A DNA stretch of 64,000 nt from Chloroflexota bacterium (GTDB lineage: Bacteria > Chloroflexota > Dormibacteria > Dormibacterales > Dormibacteraceae). Within the stretch, counting starts at the first letter, position 1; every line of letters begins with the position of its first letter. The stretch spans positions 1 to 64,000 of the forward strand of contig VBFH01000005.1 in NCBI GenBank assembly GCA_005883575.1, in the 5' to 3' direction. Shown here piece by piece: positions 50,457 to 63,204 of the stretch. A model generated the notes under the pieces. That model was not told the origin of the DNA, searched no databases, and saw only the letters and a list, made by a program, of their open reading frames with translations. A program made the translations under genes and the position numbers.

Positions 50457-51770
50457 GTGGCTGACGAGGAGAAGTTCGACGCGGTCGTCGTCGGCGCGGG
50501 TCCAGCGGGCAGCGCTGCCGCGATCACGATGGCAAAGGCCGGGCTACAGGTCGCTTTGCTCGAGCGCGGCGCGAAGCCAGGCGCCAAGAACGTCATGGGC
50601 GGCATCCTCTACAACCACTACCTCGAAGAGATCCTAGGCGAGGATTGGAAGCAGGCTCCGCTCGAGCGCCCGATCATCGAGGAGCGGCGCTGGCTGATGA
50701 CCGCGGAGGCCGCCATCGGCCTCGACTACAAGAACCTGCGCAACCGCGCTCACCCGCACTCCTACTCGGTGCTGCGCGCGCGCTTCGATCCCTGGTTTGC
50801 GGAACAGGCCGAGAAGGCGGGCGCGATGGTCGTCCCGGAGACGGTGGTCGACCGCTTGATCGTGAAGGACGGCCGCGTGGTCGGGGTCGGAACCGGGCGC
50901 GGCGACGACCTCCAGGCCGAGGTGACGATCGTGTGCGAGGGAATCGGTCTGGGCACGGGCTTGCTCGAGAGCACCGTCATCAACGGCAGGCCGCTCCGGC
51001 GCAACCTGCGCGCGGACGAGGTCGCCATGGCGGTCAAGGAGATCATGCAGCTCGATTCAGGGTTGATCGAGGAACGCTTCAACTGCGAGCCGGGCGAAGG
51101 GTGCACCATCGAATGCTTCGGCGACTCGACAATGGGGATGTCGGGCTTCATGTTCATCTACACGAACCGCGACACGCTCTCCGTCGGAGGTGGCGCGCTG
51201 CTGAGCGAGTTCAACAAGACCCTGCGCACGCCGAACGATCTGATGGAGCACTTCAAGCAGCATCCCGCGGTCAAGCCACTGCTGCGCGGGGCCGAGACGG
51301 TGGAATACCTGGCCCACTTGATTCCGGAGGGCGGCTATCGGGGCATCCCGAAAGTGTTCGGACCGGGTTATCTCGTGTGCGGCGACGCCGCGATGCTCTC
51401 CAATCCCGTGCACCGCGAGGGTTCGAACCTCGCGATGGAGTCAGGGCGGCTCGCCGGTGAGACGGTGGTCCGCGCCAAAGAGGCCGGCGACTTCTCCGAG
51501 CGAAAGCTGGCCGAGTACCGGGGGCGGCTCGACCACTCGTGGATCATGGCCGACATGAAGAAGTACGACAAAGCCGTCCCACTGCTGGAGCACAACCCAC
51601 AGCTCCTTTCGAAGTACCCCCAGGTCGCGGACCGCTCCCTCGACGAGTTCTTCCGCGTCGACGGAACGTCGAAATGGGATAAGCAAAAAAAGATCATGCG
51701 GATGCTGCGCAAAGAAGGATTGTTCCGGATGGGATGGGACACCTTCAAGTCAGTGTGGGCGATGAAGTGA
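50457..51770 (+). CDS. fixC: FixC/ETF-quinone oxidoreductase-like flavoprotein
   Basis: Encodes 437 residues from GTG 50457. FAD motif FDAVVVGAGPAGSAAAITMAKAGLQVALLERG, GGILYNHYLEEI, SYSVLRARFDPWFAEQAEKAGA, VAMAVKEIMQLDSGLIEERF, LIPEGGYRGIPKVFGPGYLVCGDAAMLSNP follow the FixC pattern. FixC moves electrons from an electron-transfer flavoprotein toward quinone or nitrogenase. No fixA, fixB or ferredoxin-like fixX is adjacent, so the partner must be elsewhere. A stop-overlapping GTG couples it to the next hydrolase. Confidence 0.85.
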   Translation: MADEEKFDAVVVGAGPAGSAAAITMAKAGLQVALLERGAKPGAKNVMGGILYNHYLEEILGEDWKQAPLERPIIEERRWLMTAEAAIGLDYKNLRNRAHPHSYSVLRARFDPWFAEQAEKAGAMVVPETVVDRLIVKDGRVVGVGTGRGDDLQAEVTIVCEGIGLGTGLLESTVINGRPLRRNLRADEVAMAVKEIMQLDSGLIEERFNCEPGEGCTIECFGDSTMGMSGFMFIYTNRDTLSVGGGALLSEFNKTLRTPNDLMEHFKQHPAVKPLLRGAETVEYLAHLIPEGGYRGIPKVFGPGYLVCGDAAMLSNPVHREGSNLAMESGRLAGETVVRAKEAGDFSERKLAEYRGRLDHSWIMADMKKYDKAVPLLEHNPQLLSKYPQVADRSLDEFFRVDGTSKWDKQKKIMRMLRKEGLFRMGWDTFKSVWAMK

Positions 51771-52777
51771 AATCCCTCCAGAGGACCGAAGACGGTGTCG
51801 TATTCGAAGACGGTTTGCTCGAGCTCAGCGACGGTCGGGAGATGGCGTGGCGTTGGTGGGGCGATCCGGACGGCAAGCCAGTTTTCCGCATCCAGGGCAC
51901 CCCGAGCTCGCGCCTGCAGCGGAACCCCGACGCCTCGGTGCAGCGGAACCTGGGCGTCCGGTTCCTGATGGCGGACCGGCCGGGCTATGGCGGTTCGACG
52001 CGAAAGCCAGGGCGCGGGATCGCTGACATCGCCGATGACTACGCCCAGCTTCTCGACGCGCATGGCCTCGACCGTGTGCCGGCGATGGGCACGAGCGGCG
52101 GAGGGCCGCACGTGCTTGCCCTGGCGGCCAGGCATCCGGACCGCGTTCCGGCCGCAACCGTGGTCGTGGGCGGGACACCGCTGCAGGGCGACGAGGTCGC
52201 GCGACTGGTCGGGGTGAACGCGCGAGGCTACGCCCTGGCGGAGGAACATCCGGACCGCGTTCCGGCCGCAACCGTGGTCGTGGGCGGGACACCGCTGCAG
52301 GGCGACGAGGTCGCGCGACTGGTCGGGGTGAACGCGCGAGGCTACGCCCTGGCGGAGGAAGGGTGGGAGCCGCTGCACGAGTTCCTGGTTGAGATTCGCG
52401 AGCGCCTGGTCGGCGACGAGGGCATGCAGGGCGTGCTGAGCGACGCCCCCGCGAGCGACCGGGCGATCATGACGGACCCGCTGTGGCAGCGAATGTCGCG
52501 CGAGAACATCGCCGAGACGCTCCGGCAGGGCGCCGAAGGTTGGACCGATGAATCCCTGGCCATGCACCGGGAGTGGGACTTCGACCCCGCCGACGTGAAG
52601 AGCTCGGTGACTTGGTGGCACGGCGATGACGACATGAACGCACCCCTGTCCGCGGCGCGACGCATCGTCGCGAGGCTGCCCGGAGTCGACCTGCGGGTGT
52701 GGCACGACGAGGGCCACTTCGCGTCACTCATCCATGACCGAGAGATCGTCGCGGAGCTTCTCTCGCGGTCGAGCTGA
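51767..52777 (+). CDS. Alpha/beta hydrolase with internal 38-residue tandem duplication
   Basis: Encodes 336 residues from GTG 51767 (overlapping the fixC TGA). Features: FRIQGTPSSRLQRNP, MADRPGYGGSTRKPGRG, nucleophile MGTSGGGPHVLALAARHP, WWHGDDDMNAPLSAARR (acid) and VWHDEGHFASLI (His). Immediately after the nucleophile helix a 38-residue block (HPDRVPAATVVVGGTPLQ to ALAEE) occurs twice in direct succession, identical at DNA level. The duplication sits at the strand after the nucleophile elbow and probably disturbs the fold. Without it the protein would be about 298 residues, the usual size. Confidence 0.82.
   Translation: MKSLQRTEDGVVFEDGLLELSDGREMAWRWWGDPDGKPVFRIQGTPSSRLQRNPDASVQRNLGVRFLMADRPGYGGSTRKPGRGIADIADDYAQLLDAHGLDRVPAMGTSGGGPHVLALAARHPDRVPAATVVVGGTPLQGDEVARLVGVNARGYALAEEHPDRVPAATVVVGGTPLQGDEVARLVGVNARGYALAEEGWEPLHEFLVEIRERLVGDEGMQGVLSDAPASDRAIMTDPLWQRMSRENIAETLRQGAEGWTDESLAMHREWDFDPADVKSSVTWWHGDDDMNAPLSAARRIVARLPGVDLRVWHDEGHFASLIHDREIVAELLSRSS
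52133..52360 (+). repeat. Perfect 114-bp tandem duplication inside the hydrolase gene
   Basis: 52133-52246 and 52247-52360 appear identical base for base (114 bp, 38 codons) and keep the reading frame. Zero divergence points to a very recent event or an assembly artefact. The two copies begin CATCCGGACCGC and end GCGGAGGAA. Confidence 0.95.
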
Positions 52778-54373: not shown

Positions 54374-57300
54374 ATGCCCGCCCCGATCACCCCTGAGGAC
54401 CTTTACCGCTTCCGCTGGATCGATCACGTTCGCCTGAGCCCGGACGGCGACCGGGTCGCCTATCAGGTGGGCTGGGCGGACGCCGCTTCGCGGCAGAATC
54501 GCAGTCGAGTTGTCGTCCGCCGGCTGCTCGATCCCGAGCCCGTGGATCCGACCGCGGGGGTGCTCCGTGACCACTCGCCCGAGTGGTCGCCGGACGGCCG
54601 CAGCATTGCCTTTGTAAGCAAGGTCGGGGCCGCCGACCAGCTGTTTGTGCTCGACATCACGACCGGAGCTCCCCCTCAGCAGCTGAGCACGGTGCTTGAC
54701 GGCGTGGGCATGCCGCGGTGGTCACCGGATGGAGAGTGGATCGCCTTCTTGGGGGCGGTGCTCGCCGACGCTGACGGCGTGGTCGACGATCCGCGGCCAC
54801 CTGAGGGTCGGGAGCAGCTGCGCCGCGCTCCAGTCGCGCGGGTCGTACGCCGCCTCGACTACAAGCACGACGGTCGCGGTTACGTGGACGGCCGGTACCA
54901 CCACCTGTTTTGCGTCCCGGCCGCGGGCGGCGAGGTCAAGCAGCTCACCGACGGAGCCTGGGACGTAACCGACTTCGACTGGTCGCCGGACAGCGGCCGC
55001 ATCGTGGTCGCCGGCAACGCCGAGCCGGGCGCCGACCTGCAGCGCGAGCTGAACCTCTACCTCGTCGACCTCGACGCCAGACGGGTCCGGCTTGGAGGCG
55101 GCTTCTATCTGAGCTCCCCGATCTGGTCGCCCAAGGGTGACCTGATCGCGTTCATCGCCCCGAATGGACTCGACGTCGGCCTGCTGGAACGACTTTGGGT
55201 CGTGCCCCTGGCCGGCGGCGGCCCCCGCTGCCTGACCGCTAACTTCGACCAGGCGGTGAATGACAGCGTCATCAACGACATGCGCTCCGGGCACACGACC
55301 AGAGTCGCTTGGTCCACGGAAGGCGATCGCATCTACTTCCCAGCCAGCGGACCGGGCGTGACGACCATCCGGTCGGTCGACCTTGACGGCAACATCCGCG
55401 AGGACGCAGGCGGGCGGCGCCGGATCTACGACTTCGACCTCGCGTCGGGAGTGCTGGCCTTCTGCGCCTCCGACCCTCGCAGCCCGGGCGAGCTCTACAT
55501 GCTGACCAAGAGCGCCGAGGCGCGCGTCACCGACCTGAATCCGTGGCTGCACGACCGCTACATCGCCGAGCCCGAGCAGCAGTTCTTCACTGCGCCGGAC
55601 GGCTGGAGGCTCGAAGGGTGGGTGCTCAAGCCCCAGGACTTCGACCAGAGCCGGGTGTACCCGACGGTGATGGAGATCCACGGCGGCCCGCACGCCCAGT
55701 ACGGATGGTCCTTCTTCCACGAGCTCCAGGTCCTGGCGGGCATGGGCTTTGTCGTCTTCTACATGAACCCACGCGGCTCCGACGGCTATGGCGAGCGGTT
55801 TCGCCGCGACGTCGTGCGCGACTGGGCGGGCAAGGACTACATCGACCTCATGAGCTCGCTGGACCAGGCCATCGAACGCACCGGCTACATCGACAGCAAG
55901 CGGCTGGGCGTCGGCGGCGGCTCTTATGGCGGTTACATGACCAACTGGATCATCGGTCAGACCGACCGCTTCGCGGCTGCGGTCTCGATGCGGTCGATCT
56001 CCAACCTCGTGAGCGAGTACTCGCAGCACGACATCGTGTTGTGGGGCGTGCTCCAGCTCGGCCCGCCGCCCTGGCCTGACCTCGACGAGCTGTGGCGCCG
56101 CTCGCCGATCCGCTACGTGAAGAACGTGCGCACCCCTCTGCTGCTTACCGCGGGCGAGATGGATCTTCGCTGCGCGATGTCTCAGTCCGAAGAGCTGTTC
56201 GGTGCGCTGCGCCTGCTCGGCAAGACCGCGGAGCTGGTGCGATTCCCCGAGGAGTCGCATGACCTTTCGCGCGGCGGCCGGCCCGACCGGCGCGTCGAGC
56301 GGCTGAAGCGGATCGTCGCATGGTACGAGAAGTATCTCGGCACCGCGTCCGCGGAACGGCCGGCCCCGGAGGAGGTCACGCAGATTCTCCCCGTCCCGGC
56401 CGAGGCGCCGCGTGAATGGGCGAAGACCGTGGCGATCACGAACCGCTCCGACGAGGCCGCGCCCGTCTACGAGGTGGCTGCCGAGCAAGAGGTGGCGCCG
56501 GAACCGGCGCCCGTCGAGGCCGCGGAGCCGGAAGTCATCCAGCCCATGGTTCCGGAGTTCGCGACCGCGGAGGCGCCGATCGTCGAGCCGGAGGCTCTGC
56601 CCGACCTCCCGGAGCCCGAGGAGCCGCCGGCCGAGGCCGCGCCCGAATCGGGACCCGAGGCGGAGCCCGAGCTTGCCCCGATCGTCGCGGAGGCGGCGCC
56701 TGTCACCGAGCCGGAACCGGAACCGGAGCCGGTCGTCGAGCCCGCGGTCGAGCCGGAACCTTTGCCGGCGGTTGCTGAGGCGGAGCTGGTCCTCGAATCG
56801 GAACCCGAACCCGTCCTCGCCGAGGCGCAGGGAGAGCCGGAACCCGGATCGACCATCACCGAACCGGAGCTGCCCGCGTTCGACGAGCCGGTCGCGCCAC
56901 CTCCGCTACCCGAACAACCCGAGCCGCAGCCGGAGCCTGTAGGTGCGGCGAGCTCCTCCGCCGAGCCCACGGCTCAAGCTGCTCCCGACGTGAGCGCCAC
57001 GCTGGTTGCCTGGCCTACCGGTGCGCCAGCGGCAAGCCCCGAAAACGGAGCTCCGGCCGAGGCCGGCTCCTTCGAGGAGGCCACCTCTGTGATTCCGGCC
57101 TGGCAGCAGACCGACCCCAACGCCGACGCCAAGCGCACCGTCTCACTCCAGGCGATGCCACCGGAGGAGATCGCTTCAGGAGCGGGCTTTGCGGCGCTGC
57201 TGACGTTCGAATCGGGTCCGTTTGCCGGCCGCATCGTTGCCCTGCCAAACCAGATGGTGAGCATCGGCCGCGCGCCAGACAACGACGTGGTCGTGGGCGA

Positions 57301-57481
57301 TCCCGCAACCTCGGGGCATCACGGCAGGATCGAGGTCCGGACCGGCTCCTTCTGGATCAGCGACCTCGGCAGCACCAACGGCACGCTGGTCAACGGCGAG
57401 CCGGTGATTGAAAAGGAGCTCTCTGACCGCGACTTGATCGCGATCGGTCAGAACACGCTGCGCTTCACCCTCGAGGCCTGA
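54374..57481 (+). CDS. S9-family prolyl oligopeptidase fused to a C-terminal FHA domain
   Basis: Encodes 1035 residues. Residues 1-400 are WD40/PD40-like beta-propeller repeats (HSPEWSPDGRSIAFVSK, PRWSPDGEWIAFLG, FDWSPDSGRIVVAGN). The S9 catalytic domain (about 400-655) has Ser517 in GGGSYGGYMTNW, Asp597 in GEMDLRC and His629 in EESHDLSRGGRPDRR. No signal peptide is seen. A long Glu/Pro/Ala linker (about 690-900) leads to threonine motifs EEATSVIPAW (about 901) and KRTVSLQA (about 920), then an FHA domain (about 940-1035: VSIGRAPDNDVVV, SGHHGRIEV, DLGSTNGTLVNG). The FHA should bind a phosphothreonine, possibly its own TSVIP motif as in GarA. ATG 54374. Its regulation is inferred. Confidence 0.9.
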   Translation: MPAPITPEDLYRFRWIDHVRLSPDGDRVAYQVGWADAASRQNRSRVVVRRLLDPEPVDPTAGVLRDHSPEWSPDGRSIAFVSKVGAADQLFVLDITTGAPPQQLSTVLDGVGMPRWSPDGEWIAFLGAVLADADGVVDDPRPPEGREQLRRAPVARVVRRLDYKHDGRGYVDGRYHHLFCVPAAGGEVKQLTDGAWDVTDFDWSPDSGRIVVAGNAEPGADLQRELNLYLVDLDARRVRLGGGFYLSSPIWSPKGDLIAFIAPNGLDVGLLERLWVVPLAGGGPRCLTANFDQAVNDSVINDMRSGHTTRVAWSTEGDRIYFPASGPGVTTIRSVDLDGNIREDAGGRRRIYDFDLASGVLAFCASDPRSPGELYMLTKSAEARVTDLNPWLHDRYIAEPEQQFFTAPDGWRLEGWVLKPQDFDQSRVYPTVMEIHGGPHAQYGWSFFHELQVLAGMGFVVFYMNPRGSDGYGERFRRDVVRDWAGKDYIDLMSSLDQAIERTGYIDSKRLGVGGGSYGGYMTNWIIGQTDRFAAAVSMRSISNLVSEYSQHDIVLWGVLQLGPPPWPDLDELWRRSPIRYVKNVRTPLLLTAGEMDLRCAMSQSEELFGALRLLGKTAELVRFPEESHDLSRGGRPDRRVERLKRIVAWYEKYLGTASAERPAPEEVTQILPVPAEAPREWAKTVAITNRSDEAAPVYEVAAEQEVAPEPAPVEAAEPEVIQPMVPEFATAEAPIVEPEALPDLPEPEEPPAEAAPESGPEAEPELAPIVAEAAPVTEPEPEPEPVVEPAVEPEPLPAVAEAELVLESEPEPVLAEAQGEPEPGSTITEPELPAFDEPVAPPPLPEQPEPQPEPVGAASSSAEPTAQAAPDVSATLVAWPTGAPAASPENGAPAEAGSFEEATSVIPAWQQTDPNADAKRTVSLQAMPPEEIASGAGFAALLTFESGPFAGRIVALPNQMVSIGRAPDNDVVVGDPATSGHHGRIEVRTGSFWISDLGSTNGTLVNGEPVIEKELSDRDLIAIGQNTLRFTLEA

Positions 57482-59153: not shown

Positions 59154-59281
59154 AACTCGCAGTGGTCGGCGCCGGCAGCATGGGCGCGGAGATCGCACAG
59201 CAGGCGGCTCTACATGGCATCAAGGTAAAAGCGGGAAAGCTTGGACGGAAGGTCGAAGAAGGGTGGTATCGCTATCAGTGA
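59150..59281 (+). pseudogene. 43-aa in-frame relic of 3-hydroxyacyl-CoA dehydrogenase
   Basis: The frame reads MKLAVVGAGSMGAEIAQQ, AALHGIKV, then KAGKLGRKVEEGWYRYQ. The first ~25 residues are the N-terminal NAD-binding start of 3-hydroxyacyl-CoA dehydrogenase (GxGxxG); the last ~15 are the characteristic C-terminal GRLGRKTGRGFYDY-like end. About 240 residues between them are missing, yet the frame and both coupled overlaps (ATGA with SCP2, TGATG with the epimerase) are kept. It cannot be an active dehydrogenase. It is either a true internal deletion or an assembly collapse. Confidence 0.75.
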
Positions 59282-59673
59282 TGAAGATTCACCACGTAGG
59301 CGTGGCGGTCGACGACCTGGACGCTGCGATCAGGCTCTACACGACGGCTTTCGGCGCCGAGCTGACGCATCGCGCCTCCAATGAGAAGGACGGGCTGAAG
59401 GCCGCCTTTCTGCGCGCCGGCGAGGCCGAGGTCGAGCTTCTGCAGCCGCTGCGCGACGACACCCCGGTCGGCAAGTTTCTGGCCAAGCGCGGGCCTGGCC
59501 TGCACCACATCGCCGTCGCCGTGCCGGACATCGAGAAGGCGATCGCCGACGCGCGGGCTGACGGCCTCGAGATGATCGATCAGGAACCGCGGATCGGCCT
59601 GCACGGCACGCGCATCGCCTTCATCCATCCAAGAAGCGTCGGCGGTGTGCTGACGGAGCTCGTCGAGACATGA
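59281..59673 (+). CDS. mce: Methylmalonyl-CoA epimerase
   Basis: Encodes 130 residues of the glyoxalase/VOC fold: MKIHHVGVAVDDLDAAIRLY, VELLQPLRDDTPVGKFLAKRGPGLHHIAVAV, GLHGTRIAFIHPRSVGGVLTELVE. The metal ligands (His near the start, HH in the middle, late Glu) are in place. It interconverts (S)- and (R)-methylmalonyl-CoA between the carboxylase and the mutase. The mutase starts in its stop (ATGA). Confidence 0.93.
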   Translation: MKIHHVGVAVDDLDAAIRLYTTAFGAELTHRASNEKDGLKAAFLRAGEAEVELLQPLRDDTPVGKFLAKRGPGLHHIAVAVPDIEKAIADARADGLEMIDQEPRIGLHGTRIAFIHPRSVGGVLTELVET

Positions 59674-61238
59674 CCGAAATTCAAAACGACAGTGGCCTGC
59701 CGCTCAAGCCTGTCTACTCAGTCGAGGATCGGCGTGCCGAGGAACCGCCGCCAGGGACGTTCCCTTTCACGCGCGGCATCCACAAGGACATGTATCGCGG
59801 ACGCCTGTGGACGATGCGCCAGTACGCCGGGTTCGGCACGGCGGCCAAATCCAACAAGCGCTACCGGTTTCTTTTGAAGCAGGGTCAGACCGGGCTGTCG
59901 GTCGCCTTCGACCTGCCCACCCAGATCGGCTACGACTCGGACGATCCCATGGCCAACGGCGAGGTCGGCAAGGTGGGTGTGGCGATCGACTCGCTCGAGG
60001 ACATGGAGATCCTGCTCCAGGACATCCCGCTCGAGCAGGTTTCCACGTCGATGACGATCAACGCGACCGCCGCCATGCTCCTGCTTCTTTATCAACTGGT
60101 GGCCGAGAAGCAGGGATGCCCGCCGGAGAAGATCACGGGCACAGTCCAGAACGACATCCTCAAGGAGTACGCGGCCCGGGGAACGTACATCTTTCCGCCC
60201 CAACCGTCGATGCGTTTGATCACCGACCTTTTCGCCTACTGCGCGCAGAACCTGCCCAACTGGAACACGATCTCGATCTCGGGCTACCACATGCGGGAGG
60301 CCGGTTCGACCGCGGCCGAGGAGATCGCCTTCACCCTCAGCCACGCCATCGCCTACGTCGAGGCGGCGCAGGCGGCCGGCCTTGCCGTAGACGATTTCGC
60401 GCCGCGCGTCTCGTTCTTCTTTGCCTGCCACATGGACTTCTTCGAAGAGGTGGCGAAGTTTCGCGCCGCCCGGCGCATGTGGGCGCGGATCATGCGCGAC
60501 CGGTTCCACGCCCGAGACGAGCGCGCGCAGGCGTTGCGCTTTCACACGCAGACTGGCGGGGTGACTCTCACTGCGCAGCAACCCCTCAACAACGTCGTCC
60601 GTACGACTCTCGAGGCCATGAGCGCTGTGCTCGGCGGCACGCAATCGCTGCACACCAACGCGTATGACGAGGCGCTCGGCCTGCCGTCGGAGAGCGCGGC
60701 CGAGATCGCATTGAGGACGCAACAGGTCATCGGCTACGAGTCCGCGGTGCCGTTCGTCGCCGATCCGCTCGGCGGCTCTTACTACGTCGAGAACCTCACC
60801 GACCGCGTCGAGGAAGAGGCGCTCGCGATCATGGCCGAGATCGACGAGCTGGGCGGCGCCGTCAGCTGCATCGAGACGGGGTGGACGCAGCGCCGGATCG
60901 CGGACAGCGCGTACCGGCTGCAGCGGCGAATCGAGGCGGGCGACCGCGTCGTCGTGGGGGTGAATCGCTACGCCGAGACCGACTCGCGTCCCGTCGAGAT
61001 CATGCGCGTGAGCCCGCGGCAGCAGGCCGCCCAGTCTGGCGCCCTGAAGAAGCTCCGGGCGCGCCGCCCGAAGGCCACCGTCGAGCGCCACCTGGCGGAG
61101 CTCGAACGCGCGGCGCGTGGAACCGGCAACCTGATGCCGCCGCTGAAGGCGGCCCTCGCGGACTACGTGACCATCGGCGAATGCTGCCGCGTCCTGCGCG
61201 GCGTGTTCGGCGAATTCCACCCAGGGGAGGCTGCGTGA
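59670..61238 (+). CDS. mutA: Methylmalonyl-CoA mutase, large (catalytic) subunit
   Basis: Encodes 522 residues: the mutase TIM-barrel domain only. FTRGIHKDMYRGRLWTMRQYAGFGTAAKSNKRYRFLL, GLSVAFDLPTQIGYDSD, SMTINATAAMLL, GTVQNDILKEYAARGTYIFPP, NTISISGYHMREAGST and RTTLEAMSAVLGGTQSLHTNAYDEALGLPS are canonical. The cobalamin-binding domain (DxHxxG) is absent, as in split-subunit mutases; its partner gene is not in the window. Product is succinyl-CoA. TGATG coupling to the next gene. Confidence 0.94.
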   Translation: MTEIQNDSGLPLKPVYSVEDRRAEEPPPGTFPFTRGIHKDMYRGRLWTMRQYAGFGTAAKSNKRYRFLLKQGQTGLSVAFDLPTQIGYDSDDPMANGEVGKVGVAIDSLEDMEILLQDIPLEQVSTSMTINATAAMLLLLYQLVAEKQGCPPEKITGTVQNDILKEYAARGTYIFPPQPSMRLITDLFAYCAQNLPNWNTISISGYHMREAGSTAAEEIAFTLSHAIAYVEAAQAAGLAVDDFAPRVSFFFACHMDFFEEVAKFRAARRMWARIMRDRFHARDERAQALRFHTQTGGVTLTAQQPLNNVVRTTLEAMSAVLGGTQSLHTNAYDEALGLPSESAAEIALRTQQVIGYESAVPFVADPLGGSYYVENLTDRVEEEALAIMAEIDELGGAVSCIETGWTQRRIADSAYRLQRRIEAGDRVVVGVNRYAETDSRPVEIMRVSPRQQAAQSGALKKLRARRPKATVERHLAELERAARGTGNLMPPLKAALADYVTIGECCRVLRGVFGEFHPGEAA

Positions 61239-61648
61239 TGTATCCGAGTGTCATACCGATGATCGCTTACGAGAACGGGCCGGTAGCGATGGACTGGCTT
61301 GCGAACGCCTTTGGCTTTCGCGAGCGCGCGCGCTTGCTCGGTGACGGCGGCAGGCTCAGCCACGGCGAGATGGAGGCCGGCGACGGCATGATCATGCTCG
61401 CCACGCCTTCGCCGCATTACCACGCACCCAAGCACCACCGCGAAGAATGTGACGCCGCCCGACGCTGGCAGGAGGTGCCGTACATCGTCGACGGCGTCCT
61501 CGTCTACGTCGACGACGTCAGGTCCCACTACGAGCGCGCCCGGGCCGAGGGCGCGACCATCCTGTCCGAGGTCGAAGAGGGCGAGGAGGGCAAGCGTTAC
61601 CGCGCCGAGGACCTAGAGGGACATCGCTGGATGTTCATCCAGCGCTGA
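61238..61648 (+). CDS. VOC/glyoxalase-family protein (PhnB-like)
   Basis: Encodes 136 residues: PSVIPMIAYENGPVAMDWLANAFGFRERARLLGDGGRLSHGEMEAGDGMIMLATPS, then VDGVLVYVDDVRSHYERARAEGATILSEVEEGEEGKRYRAEDLEGHRWMF. This is the PhnB-type VOC fold, distinct from the epimerase. Role in the operon unknown. Both ends overlap neighbours by 1 nt (TGATG), so it is a firm member of the propionyl-CoA operon. Confidence 0.85.
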   Translation: MYPSVIPMIAYENGPVAMDWLANAFGFRERARLLGDGGRLSHGEMEAGDGMIMLATPSPHYHAPKHHREECDAARRWQEVPYIVDGVLVYVDDVRSHYERARAEGATILSEVEEGEEGKRYRAEDLEGHRWMFIQR

Positions 61649-63204
61649 TGGCGACGCCGCCTCGGCACAAGAAGGTCGACCCGCTCAACGAGCTGCGACA
61701 GCGCAAGTACGAGGCCGGGCACGGCGACGCCGAGGCGTTCAACCGCCAGCACGCCAAGGGCAAGCTCACCGCGCGTGAGCGGATCGCGCGCCTGGTCGAC
61801 CGCAACTCGTTCGAGGAGATCGACCTCTTCGCCACCCACAGGGCGAGCGGCTTCGGGATCGAGTCCAGGCGAGTGCCGGGTGATGGCGTGGTCACGGGTA
61901 TGGCGAAGATCGACGGCCGCGACGTCATGCTGTTCAGCCACGACGCGAGCGTGTTCGGCGGCTCCCTTGGCGAGGTCTTCGCCGAGAAGGTGATCAAGGC
62001 CATGGACCTGGCCGTGAGCAACCGGGTCCCGATCATCGGCATCAACGACTCGGGCGGTGCGCGGATCCAGGAAGGCGTGGTCTCGCTCGCCGGTTACGCC
62101 GAGATCTTCTGGCGCAACGTCGAGGCGAGCGGCGTCGTCCCGCAGCTCAGCCTGATCCTCGGGCCCTGCACCGGGGGCGCGGTGTACTCGCCTGCGATCA
62201 CCGACTTCACCTTCATGGTCCACGGCGTGGGTTACATGTTCATCACCGGTCCGGAGGTCATCCGGGTCACCACCGGCGAGGATGTGACGTTCGACTCGCT
62301 CGGCGGGGCCGAGGTTCACAACGTGAAGTCAGGCGTGGCGCATTTCCTGGCCGAGAGCGAGGACGAGTGCTTCGCCCAGGTCCGCAAGCTGTTCCGGTAC
62401 ATCCCGCAGAGCTGCGACGACCTGCCGCGCGTGCTCGAGGCGACGGACGATCCAGAGCGCGCCGAGCCCTCGCTTGCCACGGTCATTCCCGACAACCCGA
62501 AGGAGCCGTACGACATCAAGGACGTCATCGGCGCGGTTGTCGACCAGGGCGATTTCTTCGAGGTGCATCCCTACTTCGCCATGAACCTCGTGGTCGGCTT
62601 CGCCCACCTCGACGGCAAGCCCGTGGGCGTCGTGGCGAACCAACCCAAGGTGATGGCCGGCGCTCTCGACATCAACGCGTCGGACAAGGGCGCGCGGTTC
62701 GTGCGTTTCTGCGACGCGTTCAACATCCCGCTCGTGACCTTTGTCGACGTGCCTGGGTTTCTGCCCGGGACGTCGCAGGAGTATGGCGGCATCATCCGTC
62801 ACGGAGCCAAGCTCCTCTACGCCTTCAGCGAGGCGACGGTGCCGAAGCTCACGGTGATCACACGCAAGGCGTACGGAGGCGCGTATTGCGTCATGTGCTC
62901 GAAGCACATCCGTGCCGACTTCAATGTGGCCTGGCCCACGGCCGAGATTGCGGTGATGGGCCCTGAAGGCGCGGTGAACATCCTTTTCCGGCGTGAGCTG
63001 GCGAGTGGCGAGGCGCAGCGGAGCGAGCTGGTCAGCGAGTACACGGAGCGTTTCGCTAACCCGTACATCGCCGCGGAGCGAGGCTACATCGACGACGTGA
63101 TCGAGCCGGGTCGGACGCGCGGAGAGCTGATCCGCGCGCTGCGGATCGCGATGCGCAAGGAGCGGCGCCGAAGTCCGCGCTGGCACGGAAACATCCCGCT
63201 TTAG
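61648..63204 (+). CDS. pccB: Propionyl-CoA (acyl-CoA) carboxylase, carboxyltransferase subunit
   Basis: Encodes 518 residues. GKLTARERIARLVDRNSFEEID, NDSGGARIQEGVVSLAGYAEIFWRNVEASGVVPQLSLILGPCTGGAVYSPAITDF, VDVPGFLPGTSQEYGGIIRHGAKLLYAFSEATVPKLTVITRKAYGGAYCVMCSKH, and the C-terminal RRSPRWHGNIPL are textbook carboxyltransferase features. With the epimerase and mutase it points to propionyl-CoA carboxylase; a methylmalonyl-CoA decarboxylase alpha subunit (MmdA) is a close relative. The biotin carboxylase subunit is not in the window. Confidence 0.92.
   Translation: MATPPRHKKVDPLNELRQRKYEAGHGDAEAFNRQHAKGKLTARERIARLVDRNSFEEIDLFATHRASGFGIESRRVPGDGVVTGMAKIDGRDVMLFSHDASVFGGSLGEVFAEKVIKAMDLAVSNRVPIIGINDSGGARIQEGVVSLAGYAEIFWRNVEASGVVPQLSLILGPCTGGAVYSPAITDFTFMVHGVGYMFITGPEVIRVTTGEDVTFDSLGGAEVHNVKSGVAHFLAESEDECFAQVRKLFRYIPQSCDDLPRVLEATDDPERAEPSLATVIPDNPKEPYDIKDVIGAVVDQGDFFEVHPYFAMNLVVGFAHLDGKPVGVVANQPKVMAGALDINASDKGARFVRFCDAFNIPLVTFVDVPGFLPGTSQEYGGIIRHGAKLLYAFSEATVPKLTVITRKAYGGAYCVMCSKHIRADFNVAWPTAEIAVMGPEGAVNILFRRELASGEAQRSELVSEYTERFANPYIAAERGYIDDVIEPGRTRGELIRALRIAMRKERRRSPRWHGNIPL

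What the first reader, a model, noticed from the sequence alone, without database searches (positions are those of the whole stretch)
54374..57481. Prolyl-oligopeptidase fused to an FHA domain with a GarA-like threonine motif
An apparently active intracellular S9 peptidase (Ser517, Asp597, His629) carries a 200-residue Glu/Pro linker and a C-terminal FHA domain. Just before the FHA is EEATSVIPAW, similar in layout to the phosphorylated ETTSVF-type motif of GarA, which is bound by its own FHA. This suggests a protease switched or localised by Ser/Thr kinase signalling. I know of no described S9-FHA enzyme.
Basis: partly seen in the sequence, partly recalled or inferred. Interest (0 to 1): 0.72.

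Follow-up and report, generated by a model that had tools for sequence, protein, structure and literature searches.

The report
Peptidase fused to a phosphothreonine-binding domain
In one lineage of uncultured soil bacteria (Dormibacteria), an ordinary cytosolic peptide-trimming enzyme was joined once to a phosphothreonine-reading domain through a long flexible tether carrying conserved, GarA-like threonine sites, which suggests (but does not show) that a protein-kinase pathway controls or positions a peptidase.

Summary
Window 54374-57481 (+) is one intact gene for a 1035-residue S9C-type peptidase: Ser517/Asp597/His629, and a fold closest to the Geobacillus S9 carboxypeptidase 8wt1. A roughly 270-residue disordered Pro/Ala/Glu tether leads to a C-terminal FHA domain.

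It is not an assembly chimera. The same one-ORF fusion occurs in five genera of the family and forms a single clade (100/100 support). Unfused S9 orthologues sit in six other genera; in the two checked they lie at the same locus.

The FHA half is closest to the family's only other recurrent FHA gene, a membrane FHA protein beside a PP2C phosphatase, so the fusion probably copied that gene's 3' end.

In a tether that otherwise drifts freely, Thr669, Thr876, Thr904 and Thr922 and their flanks are 15-16/16 conserved. Thr904 (EEATSVIPAW) lies 38 residues before the FHA, matching the GarA/OdhI ETTSVF layout, except that the first Thr is always Ala. Related Thr motifs are conserved in two Hanks kinases, the PP2C C-terminus and the membrane FHA.

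Best reading: a peptidase plugged into a kinase/phosphatase/FHA circuit. Phosphorylation, and cis versus trans action, are untested. It is not a GarA/OdhI member. It is a new variant of known modules.

The parts
54374..57481 (+). S9C peptidase-FHA fusion gene (1035 aa)
   Evidence: one ORF; orthologous one-ORF fusions
54374..55543 (+). N-terminal beta-propeller (about residues 1-390)
   Evidence: PD40/DPPIV_N hits; AlphaFold strands with pLDDT mostly >90; Foldseek to 8wt1, TMt 0.93
55706..56341 (+). Peptidase_S9 alpha/beta-hydrolase domain, residues 445-656
   Evidence: Pfam E 9e-52
55922..55924 (+). nucleophile Ser517 (GGSYGG, S9C signature)
   Evidence: invariant in 60 sequences; subfamily motif from PMC12871690
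56162..56164 (+). catalytic Asp597
56258..56260 (+). catalytic His629
56351..57193 (+). disordered Pro/Ala/Glu tether, residues 660-940
   Evidence: pLDDT about 30; variable length and low conservation in 16 orthologues
56369..56395 (+). Thr motif 1: EEVTQILPV, Thr669
   Evidence: Thr 15/16 conserved
56990..57016 (+). Thr motif 2: VSATLVAWP, Thr876
   Evidence: Thr, Trp and Pro 16/16
57074..57103 (+). Thr motif 3, GarA-like: EEATSVIPAW, Thr904
   Evidence: Thr 16/16; start of the NCBIfam OdhI alignment
57131..57154 (+). Thr motif 4: KRTVSLQA, Thr922
   Evidence: T-V-S 16/16
57194..57478 (+). FHA domain (residues 941-1035; Pfam core 962-1025 = 57257-57448)
   Evidence: Pfam FHA 64.2 bits; GarA/OdhI are the best PDB matches; pocket residues present

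Best explanation
The gene encodes a cytosolic S9C oligopeptidase, probably carboxypeptidase-like. Once, in a Dormibacteria ancestor, it was fused in place to the 3' half of the lineage's membrane-FHA signalling gene (disordered tail plus FHA). Inferred mechanism: Hanks-type kinases phosphorylate the conserved T-x-hydrophobic-hydrophobic(-P) sites in the tether and in their own tails. The FHA reads one of these phosphothreonines, either in cis at Thr904 (GarA-like closed state) or in trans on the kinase or membrane-FHA complex, so peptidase placement or partner binding follows kinase state. The PP2C encoded beside the membrane FHA would reset it. Shown: the fusion, domains, triad, single origin, FHA donor relationship, and conserved Thr islands shared with the kinase/PP2C/FHA set. 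Inferred: phosphorylation, FHA ligand, direction of regulation, substrates.
For: S9 and FHA profiles. S9C carboxypeptidase fold, 8wt1 TMt 0.93, with 5yzn and 7ep9 next. One-ORF fusion in 5 genera as a single 100/100 clade. Positional S9 orthologue unfused in G052 and G189 beside the same molybdoenzyme gene. FHA closest to the family's membrane FHA (52-59% identity, about 100-115 bits, against 73 bits or less elsewhere). Four Thr islands conserved in an otherwise drifting tether. Related Thr motifs in the membrane FHA tail, PP2C C-terminus (T-A-V-L-P), kinase K1 N-tail (TMRLIPVPP 16/16) and kinase K2 juxtamembrane segment. K1 is found in most fusion-bearing genera and not in five of the six unfused genera; the one K1 homologue from an unfused genus (G401) lacks the motif. 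OdhI HMM aligns from residue 902. GarA/OdhI cis binding is published (PMC2784874).
Against: No phosphosite, binding or activity data exist for this lineage. AlphaFold shows no docking. G043 carries the fusion without a K1 orthologue at the threshold used. Thr in the linker as a class is only weakly enriched among conserved columns (Fisher P 0.06-0.24); the case rests on the specific islands. The gene is not next to a kinase. S9 enzymes cleave only short peptides (PMC12871690), so a direct signalling-protease role is not obvious.
Confidence: 0.62

Rival explanations
1. GarA-type intramolecular switch specifically: kinase phosphorylation of Thr904 makes the tail bind its own FHA, which frees or blocks FHA partners (or changes S9 access), as in OdhI/GarA.
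For: E-A-T-S-V-I matches E-T-T-S-V-F; Thr904 is 38 residues before the first FHA strand, and the OdhI NCBIfam model aligns colinearly from 902; the FHA's best PDB relatives are GarA and OdhI; Thr904 is 16/16.
Against: The first Thr of ETTS is Ala in all 16; three other Thr sites are about equally conserved; the NCBIfam OdhI cut-off is not reached (58 against 200 bits); no docking in AlphaFold.
Confidence: 0.33
2. Recruitment in trans: the FHA tethers the peptidase to phosphorylated kinase K1 (TMRLIPVPP tail) or to the membrane FHA complex, placing peptide hydrolysis at the membrane.
For: K1 N-tail motif invariant in 16/16 and present in fusion genera g1, g5, g7 and g8, absent from the G401 homologue; a long disordered tether fits a fishing-line role.
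Against: G043 has the fusion but no K1; only one motif-absent comparison; no localisation data.
Confidence: 0.33
3. The FHA fusion is a nearly neutral or structural passenger (e.g. stability or multimer tether), and the Thr islands are kept as linear motifs for FHA-family reasons inherited from the donor gene rather than for peptidase control.
For: Tail and FHA were inherited together from the membrane FHA gene; the S9 works alone in sister genera.
Against: FHA (mean 90% identity) and islands stay under strong constraint after the fusion while the rest of the linker falls to 48%; motif 1 (Thr669) was not seen in the unfused S9 termini nor in the donor tails shown.
Confidence: 0.2
4. Assembly chimera or frame artefact.
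For: Some orthologues are split at contig ends or N gaps in the repetitive linker.
Against: 16 full-length one-ORF orthologues from different genomes and genera; no N in this gene.
Confidence: 0.01

Closest known systems
S9C carboxypeptidases (Geobacillus 8wt1; Deinococcus radiodurans 5yzn/6ikg; Fusobacterium nucleatum S9Cfn 7ep9)
   Same: Propeller plus alpha/beta-hydrolase fold, GGSYGG, Ser-Asp-His order; TMt 0.88-0.93
   Different: None of those chains extends into a tether plus FHA; carboxypeptidase specificity of this protein untested
GarA / OdhI (Actinobacteria)
   Same: C-terminal FHA preceded by E-x-T-S-V-hydrophobic at similar spacing; FHA is the best PDB relative
   Different: GarA/OdhI are small stand-alone inhibitors described as unique to Actinobacteria (PMC12321487); here the partner is a covalently fused peptidase, the first Thr is Ala, and there are extra Thr sites
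Membrane FHA protein next to PP2C in the same genomes (G000:C118, 533-aa ORF)
   Same: Closest FHA (about 55% identity) and ordered Thr motifs in a low-complexity tail
   Different: TM anchor and Pro/Ala/Trp linker, no enzyme domain
Trypsin-FHA fusion of Bacteroides thetaiotaomicron NP_811686.1 (PMC2605481)
   Same: Precedent for a serine protease fused to FHA domains
   Different: Unrelated protease fold, two N-terminal FHAs; no S9-FHA reported there

Membership tests
S9C prolyl-oligopeptidase subfamily | GGSYGG nucleophile motif and Ser-Asp-His order | tested here: met
   S517 in GGSYGG, D597, H629 (motif definition PMC12871690)
S9C prolyl-oligopeptidase subfamily | N-terminal beta-propeller plus C-terminal alpha/beta-hydrolase | tested here: met
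   model; Foldseek 8wt1 TMt 0.93
S9 carboxypeptidase | release of C-terminal residues; binding of the substrate carboxylate | not testable with these tools
   only nearest-fold inference; the papers describing the residues are not held
FHA domain | profile match and pocket residues (GR, SxxH, NG) | tested here: met
   Pfam 64.2 against 20.7 bits; G965-R966, S980-H983, N1002-G1003
FHA domain | phosphothreonine binding | not testable with these tools
   needs peptide-binding assays
GarA/OdhI | ETTS double-Thr phosphorylation motif | tested here: not met
   EATS or EATG in the fusion orthologues: second Thr kept in 16/16, first is Ala in 16/16
GarA/OdhI | curated family score | tested here: not met
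   NF041660 58.2 bits against cut-off 200
GarA/OdhI | small stand-alone protein (OdhI 143 aa) | tested here: not met
   1035-aa fusion
GarA/OdhI | intramolecular pThr-FHA closure | not testable with these tools
   AlphaFold uninformative

The most novel reading that the evidence does not exclude
A lineage-specific phosphothreonine code (T-x-hydrophobic-hydrophobic-P and its T-M-x-L/M relatives) shared by Hanks kinases, a PP2C, a membrane FHA protein and this peptidase links kinase state to intracellular peptide hydrolysis: the first S9 peptidase under FHA/kinase control.
Probability: 0.33. Interest if true: 0.74.

Novelty: new variant of a known kind. Interest (0 to 1): 0.52.

Why it matters
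Bacterial Hanks kinases have few clearly wired enzymatic outputs. A peptidase covalently fused to an FHA reader, with conserved candidate sites in the enzyme, kinases and phosphatase, gives a compact and testable kinase-to-enzyme circuit. It also shows the GarA-type tail-FHA layout outside Actinobacteria and attached to a different kind of effector. The unfused sister genera provide natural controls.

Tried and rejected
Assembly chimera: rejected, because 16 full-length orthologues are one ORF and three unfused-looking rows in the first tree are contig ends. A split gene in G352/L010: explained by N runs in the linker. Other S9-FHA fusions: none in the S9 ORFs of the other best-matching loci of the 84,980-species collection, none in four long-ORF S9 hits, and none in 16 long-ORF FHA hits elsewhere in the phylum, where no S9 was found and at least five carry an ABC signature. 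Distant S9 subfamilies in other phyla were not exhaustively searched. Structure of the tail-FHA alone: mean pLDDT 43 from 7 sequences, discarded. A general 'Thr enriched among conserved linker columns' test was not significant and is not used. Papers on S9 carboxypeptidase specificity residues were not held. Literature searches for S9-FHA found nothing.

Full report
What is there. The ORF at 54374-57481 (+) encodes 1035 residues. Pfam finds PD40/DPPIV_N, Peptidase_S9 (445-656, E 9e-52) and FHA (962-1025, E 1.5e-17). The triad Ser517-Asp597-His629 is invariant in 60 homologues. AlphaFold with 60 sequences gives a mostly confident propeller plus hydrolase (residues 1-660, mostly pLDDT >90), a tether with pLDDT about 30 from 675 on, and a moderately confident FHA. 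Foldseek's best PDB matches are S9 carboxypeptidases: 8wt1 (TMt 0.93), then 5yzn/6ikg and 7ep9. The GGSYGG motif places it in S9C by the definition in PMC12871690. No TM or signal-like segment is visible.

It is a real, heritable fusion. The nearest named contigs are Chloroflexi/Candidatus Dormiibacterota MAGs. Within the genus, 11 of 17 genomes show S9 and FHA in one ORF; the others are cut by contig ends or one frameshift. The fusion also occurs in genera g2, g5, g7 and g8 of the family. In g3, g4, g6, g179, g180 and g181 the S9 orthologue ends near residue 660-680 with no FHA. The tree gives one fused clade at 100/100 (one search agrees once contig-end rows are recognised). In unfused G052 and G189 the S9 gene sits at the same locus, beside the same molybdopterin oxidoreductase and FAD oxidoreductase, and in G052 also near methylmalonyl-CoA mutase. 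So the FHA was added in place.

Where the FHA came from. Fusion-bearing genomes of other genera have one other FHA gene (plus a 38-residue fragment in G228), and the window's genome likewise has two FHA genes in all: a TM-anchored, Pro/Ala/Trp-rich protein with a C-terminal FHA next to a PP2C, besides the fusion. Among 400 genomes of the phylum, those membrane FHAs are the closest relatives of the S9-linked FHA (52-59% identity, about 100-115 bits; next best 73 bits). Genus g6 has the membrane FHA but unfused S9; g4 has no FHA at all. The fusion donor was therefore probably a copy of the membrane FHA 3' end.

The threonine islands. In 16 full-length orthologues (995-1118 aa as aligned) the linker averages 48% identity per residue in its main part. 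Four islands stand out: EExTQ[IVL]LP (Thr669, 15/16), STLVAWP (Thr876, 16/16), EEATS[VI]IP[AV]W (Thr904, 16/16) and TVS[LM]QA (Thr922, 16/16). The linker has two T-x-[ILVM]-[ILVM]-P sites against 0.07 expected after shuffling, P=0.0016, and the window's other 58 ORFs have four in all. Thr904 lies 38 residues before the first FHA strand. The NCBIfam OdhI model aligns from 902 onward though far below its cut-off, and GarA/OdhI are the best PDB relatives of the FHA. In OdhI/GarA the equivalent Thr is phosphorylated and bound by its own FHA (PMC2784874). GarA is described as unique to Actinobacteria, with an ETTS motif (PMC12321487). Here the first Thr is Ala in all 16.

The wider circuit. The genome has six Hanks-kinase genes. 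K1 (G000:C94) has an N-terminal disordered tail whose longest invariant stretch is TMRLIPVPP (TMRLIPVP in 16/16 aligned rows), and K2 (G000:C77) has an invariant Thr in its TMVM-type juxtamembrane segment. The PP2C ends in TKTAVLPK, and the membrane FHA tail has ordered DVAATM, [EP]TTLMPAW and [ED]TMAM motifs. K1 orthologues with the motif occur in fusion genera g1, g5, g7 and g8. None was found at the threshold in five of six unfused genera, and the G401 homologue lacks the motif; but G043 has the fusion without K1. This co-occurrence is suggestive only.

Interpretation. The best-supported reading is a peptidase wired into a Hanks-kinase/PP2C/FHA circuit. Cis (GarA-like) and trans (recruitment) versions cannot be separated here, and no phosphorylation has been shown. 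S9 enzymes act on short peptides (PMC12871690), so the output is more likely controlled peptide turnover or placement than cleavage of folded signalling proteins (inference).

Novelty. Both modules are known, and a trypsin-FHA fusion has been catalogued (NP_811686.1, PMC2605481). No S9-FHA enzyme was found in the library held. I rate it a new variant of known kinds. The most novel reading is a lineage-specific phosphothreonine code controlling a peptidase.

Noticed in passing
window 52133-52360: Perfect in-frame 114-bp (38-aa) tandem duplication inside an alpha/beta-hydrolase gene (51734-52777), absent from orthologues L003, L005 and L006: private duplication or assembly artefact.
   Followed up: partly
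G000:C94:211349-212680 (locus L166): Hanks kinase with an invariant N-terminal TMRLIPVP motif in a drifting disordered tail, next to a CHASE2-adenylate/guanylate cyclase gene.
   Followed up: partly
L161:3775-6177 (-): Membrane FHA protein with a very long Pro/Ala/Trp linker next to a PP2C whose C-terminus TKTAVLPK carries the same type of Thr motif.
   Followed up: partly
window 59263-63204: Methylmalonyl-CoA epimerase-like protein, methylmalonyl-CoA mutase and a carboxyltransferase gene (propionate pathway) downstream; mutase synteny kept in unfused G052.
   Followed up: no
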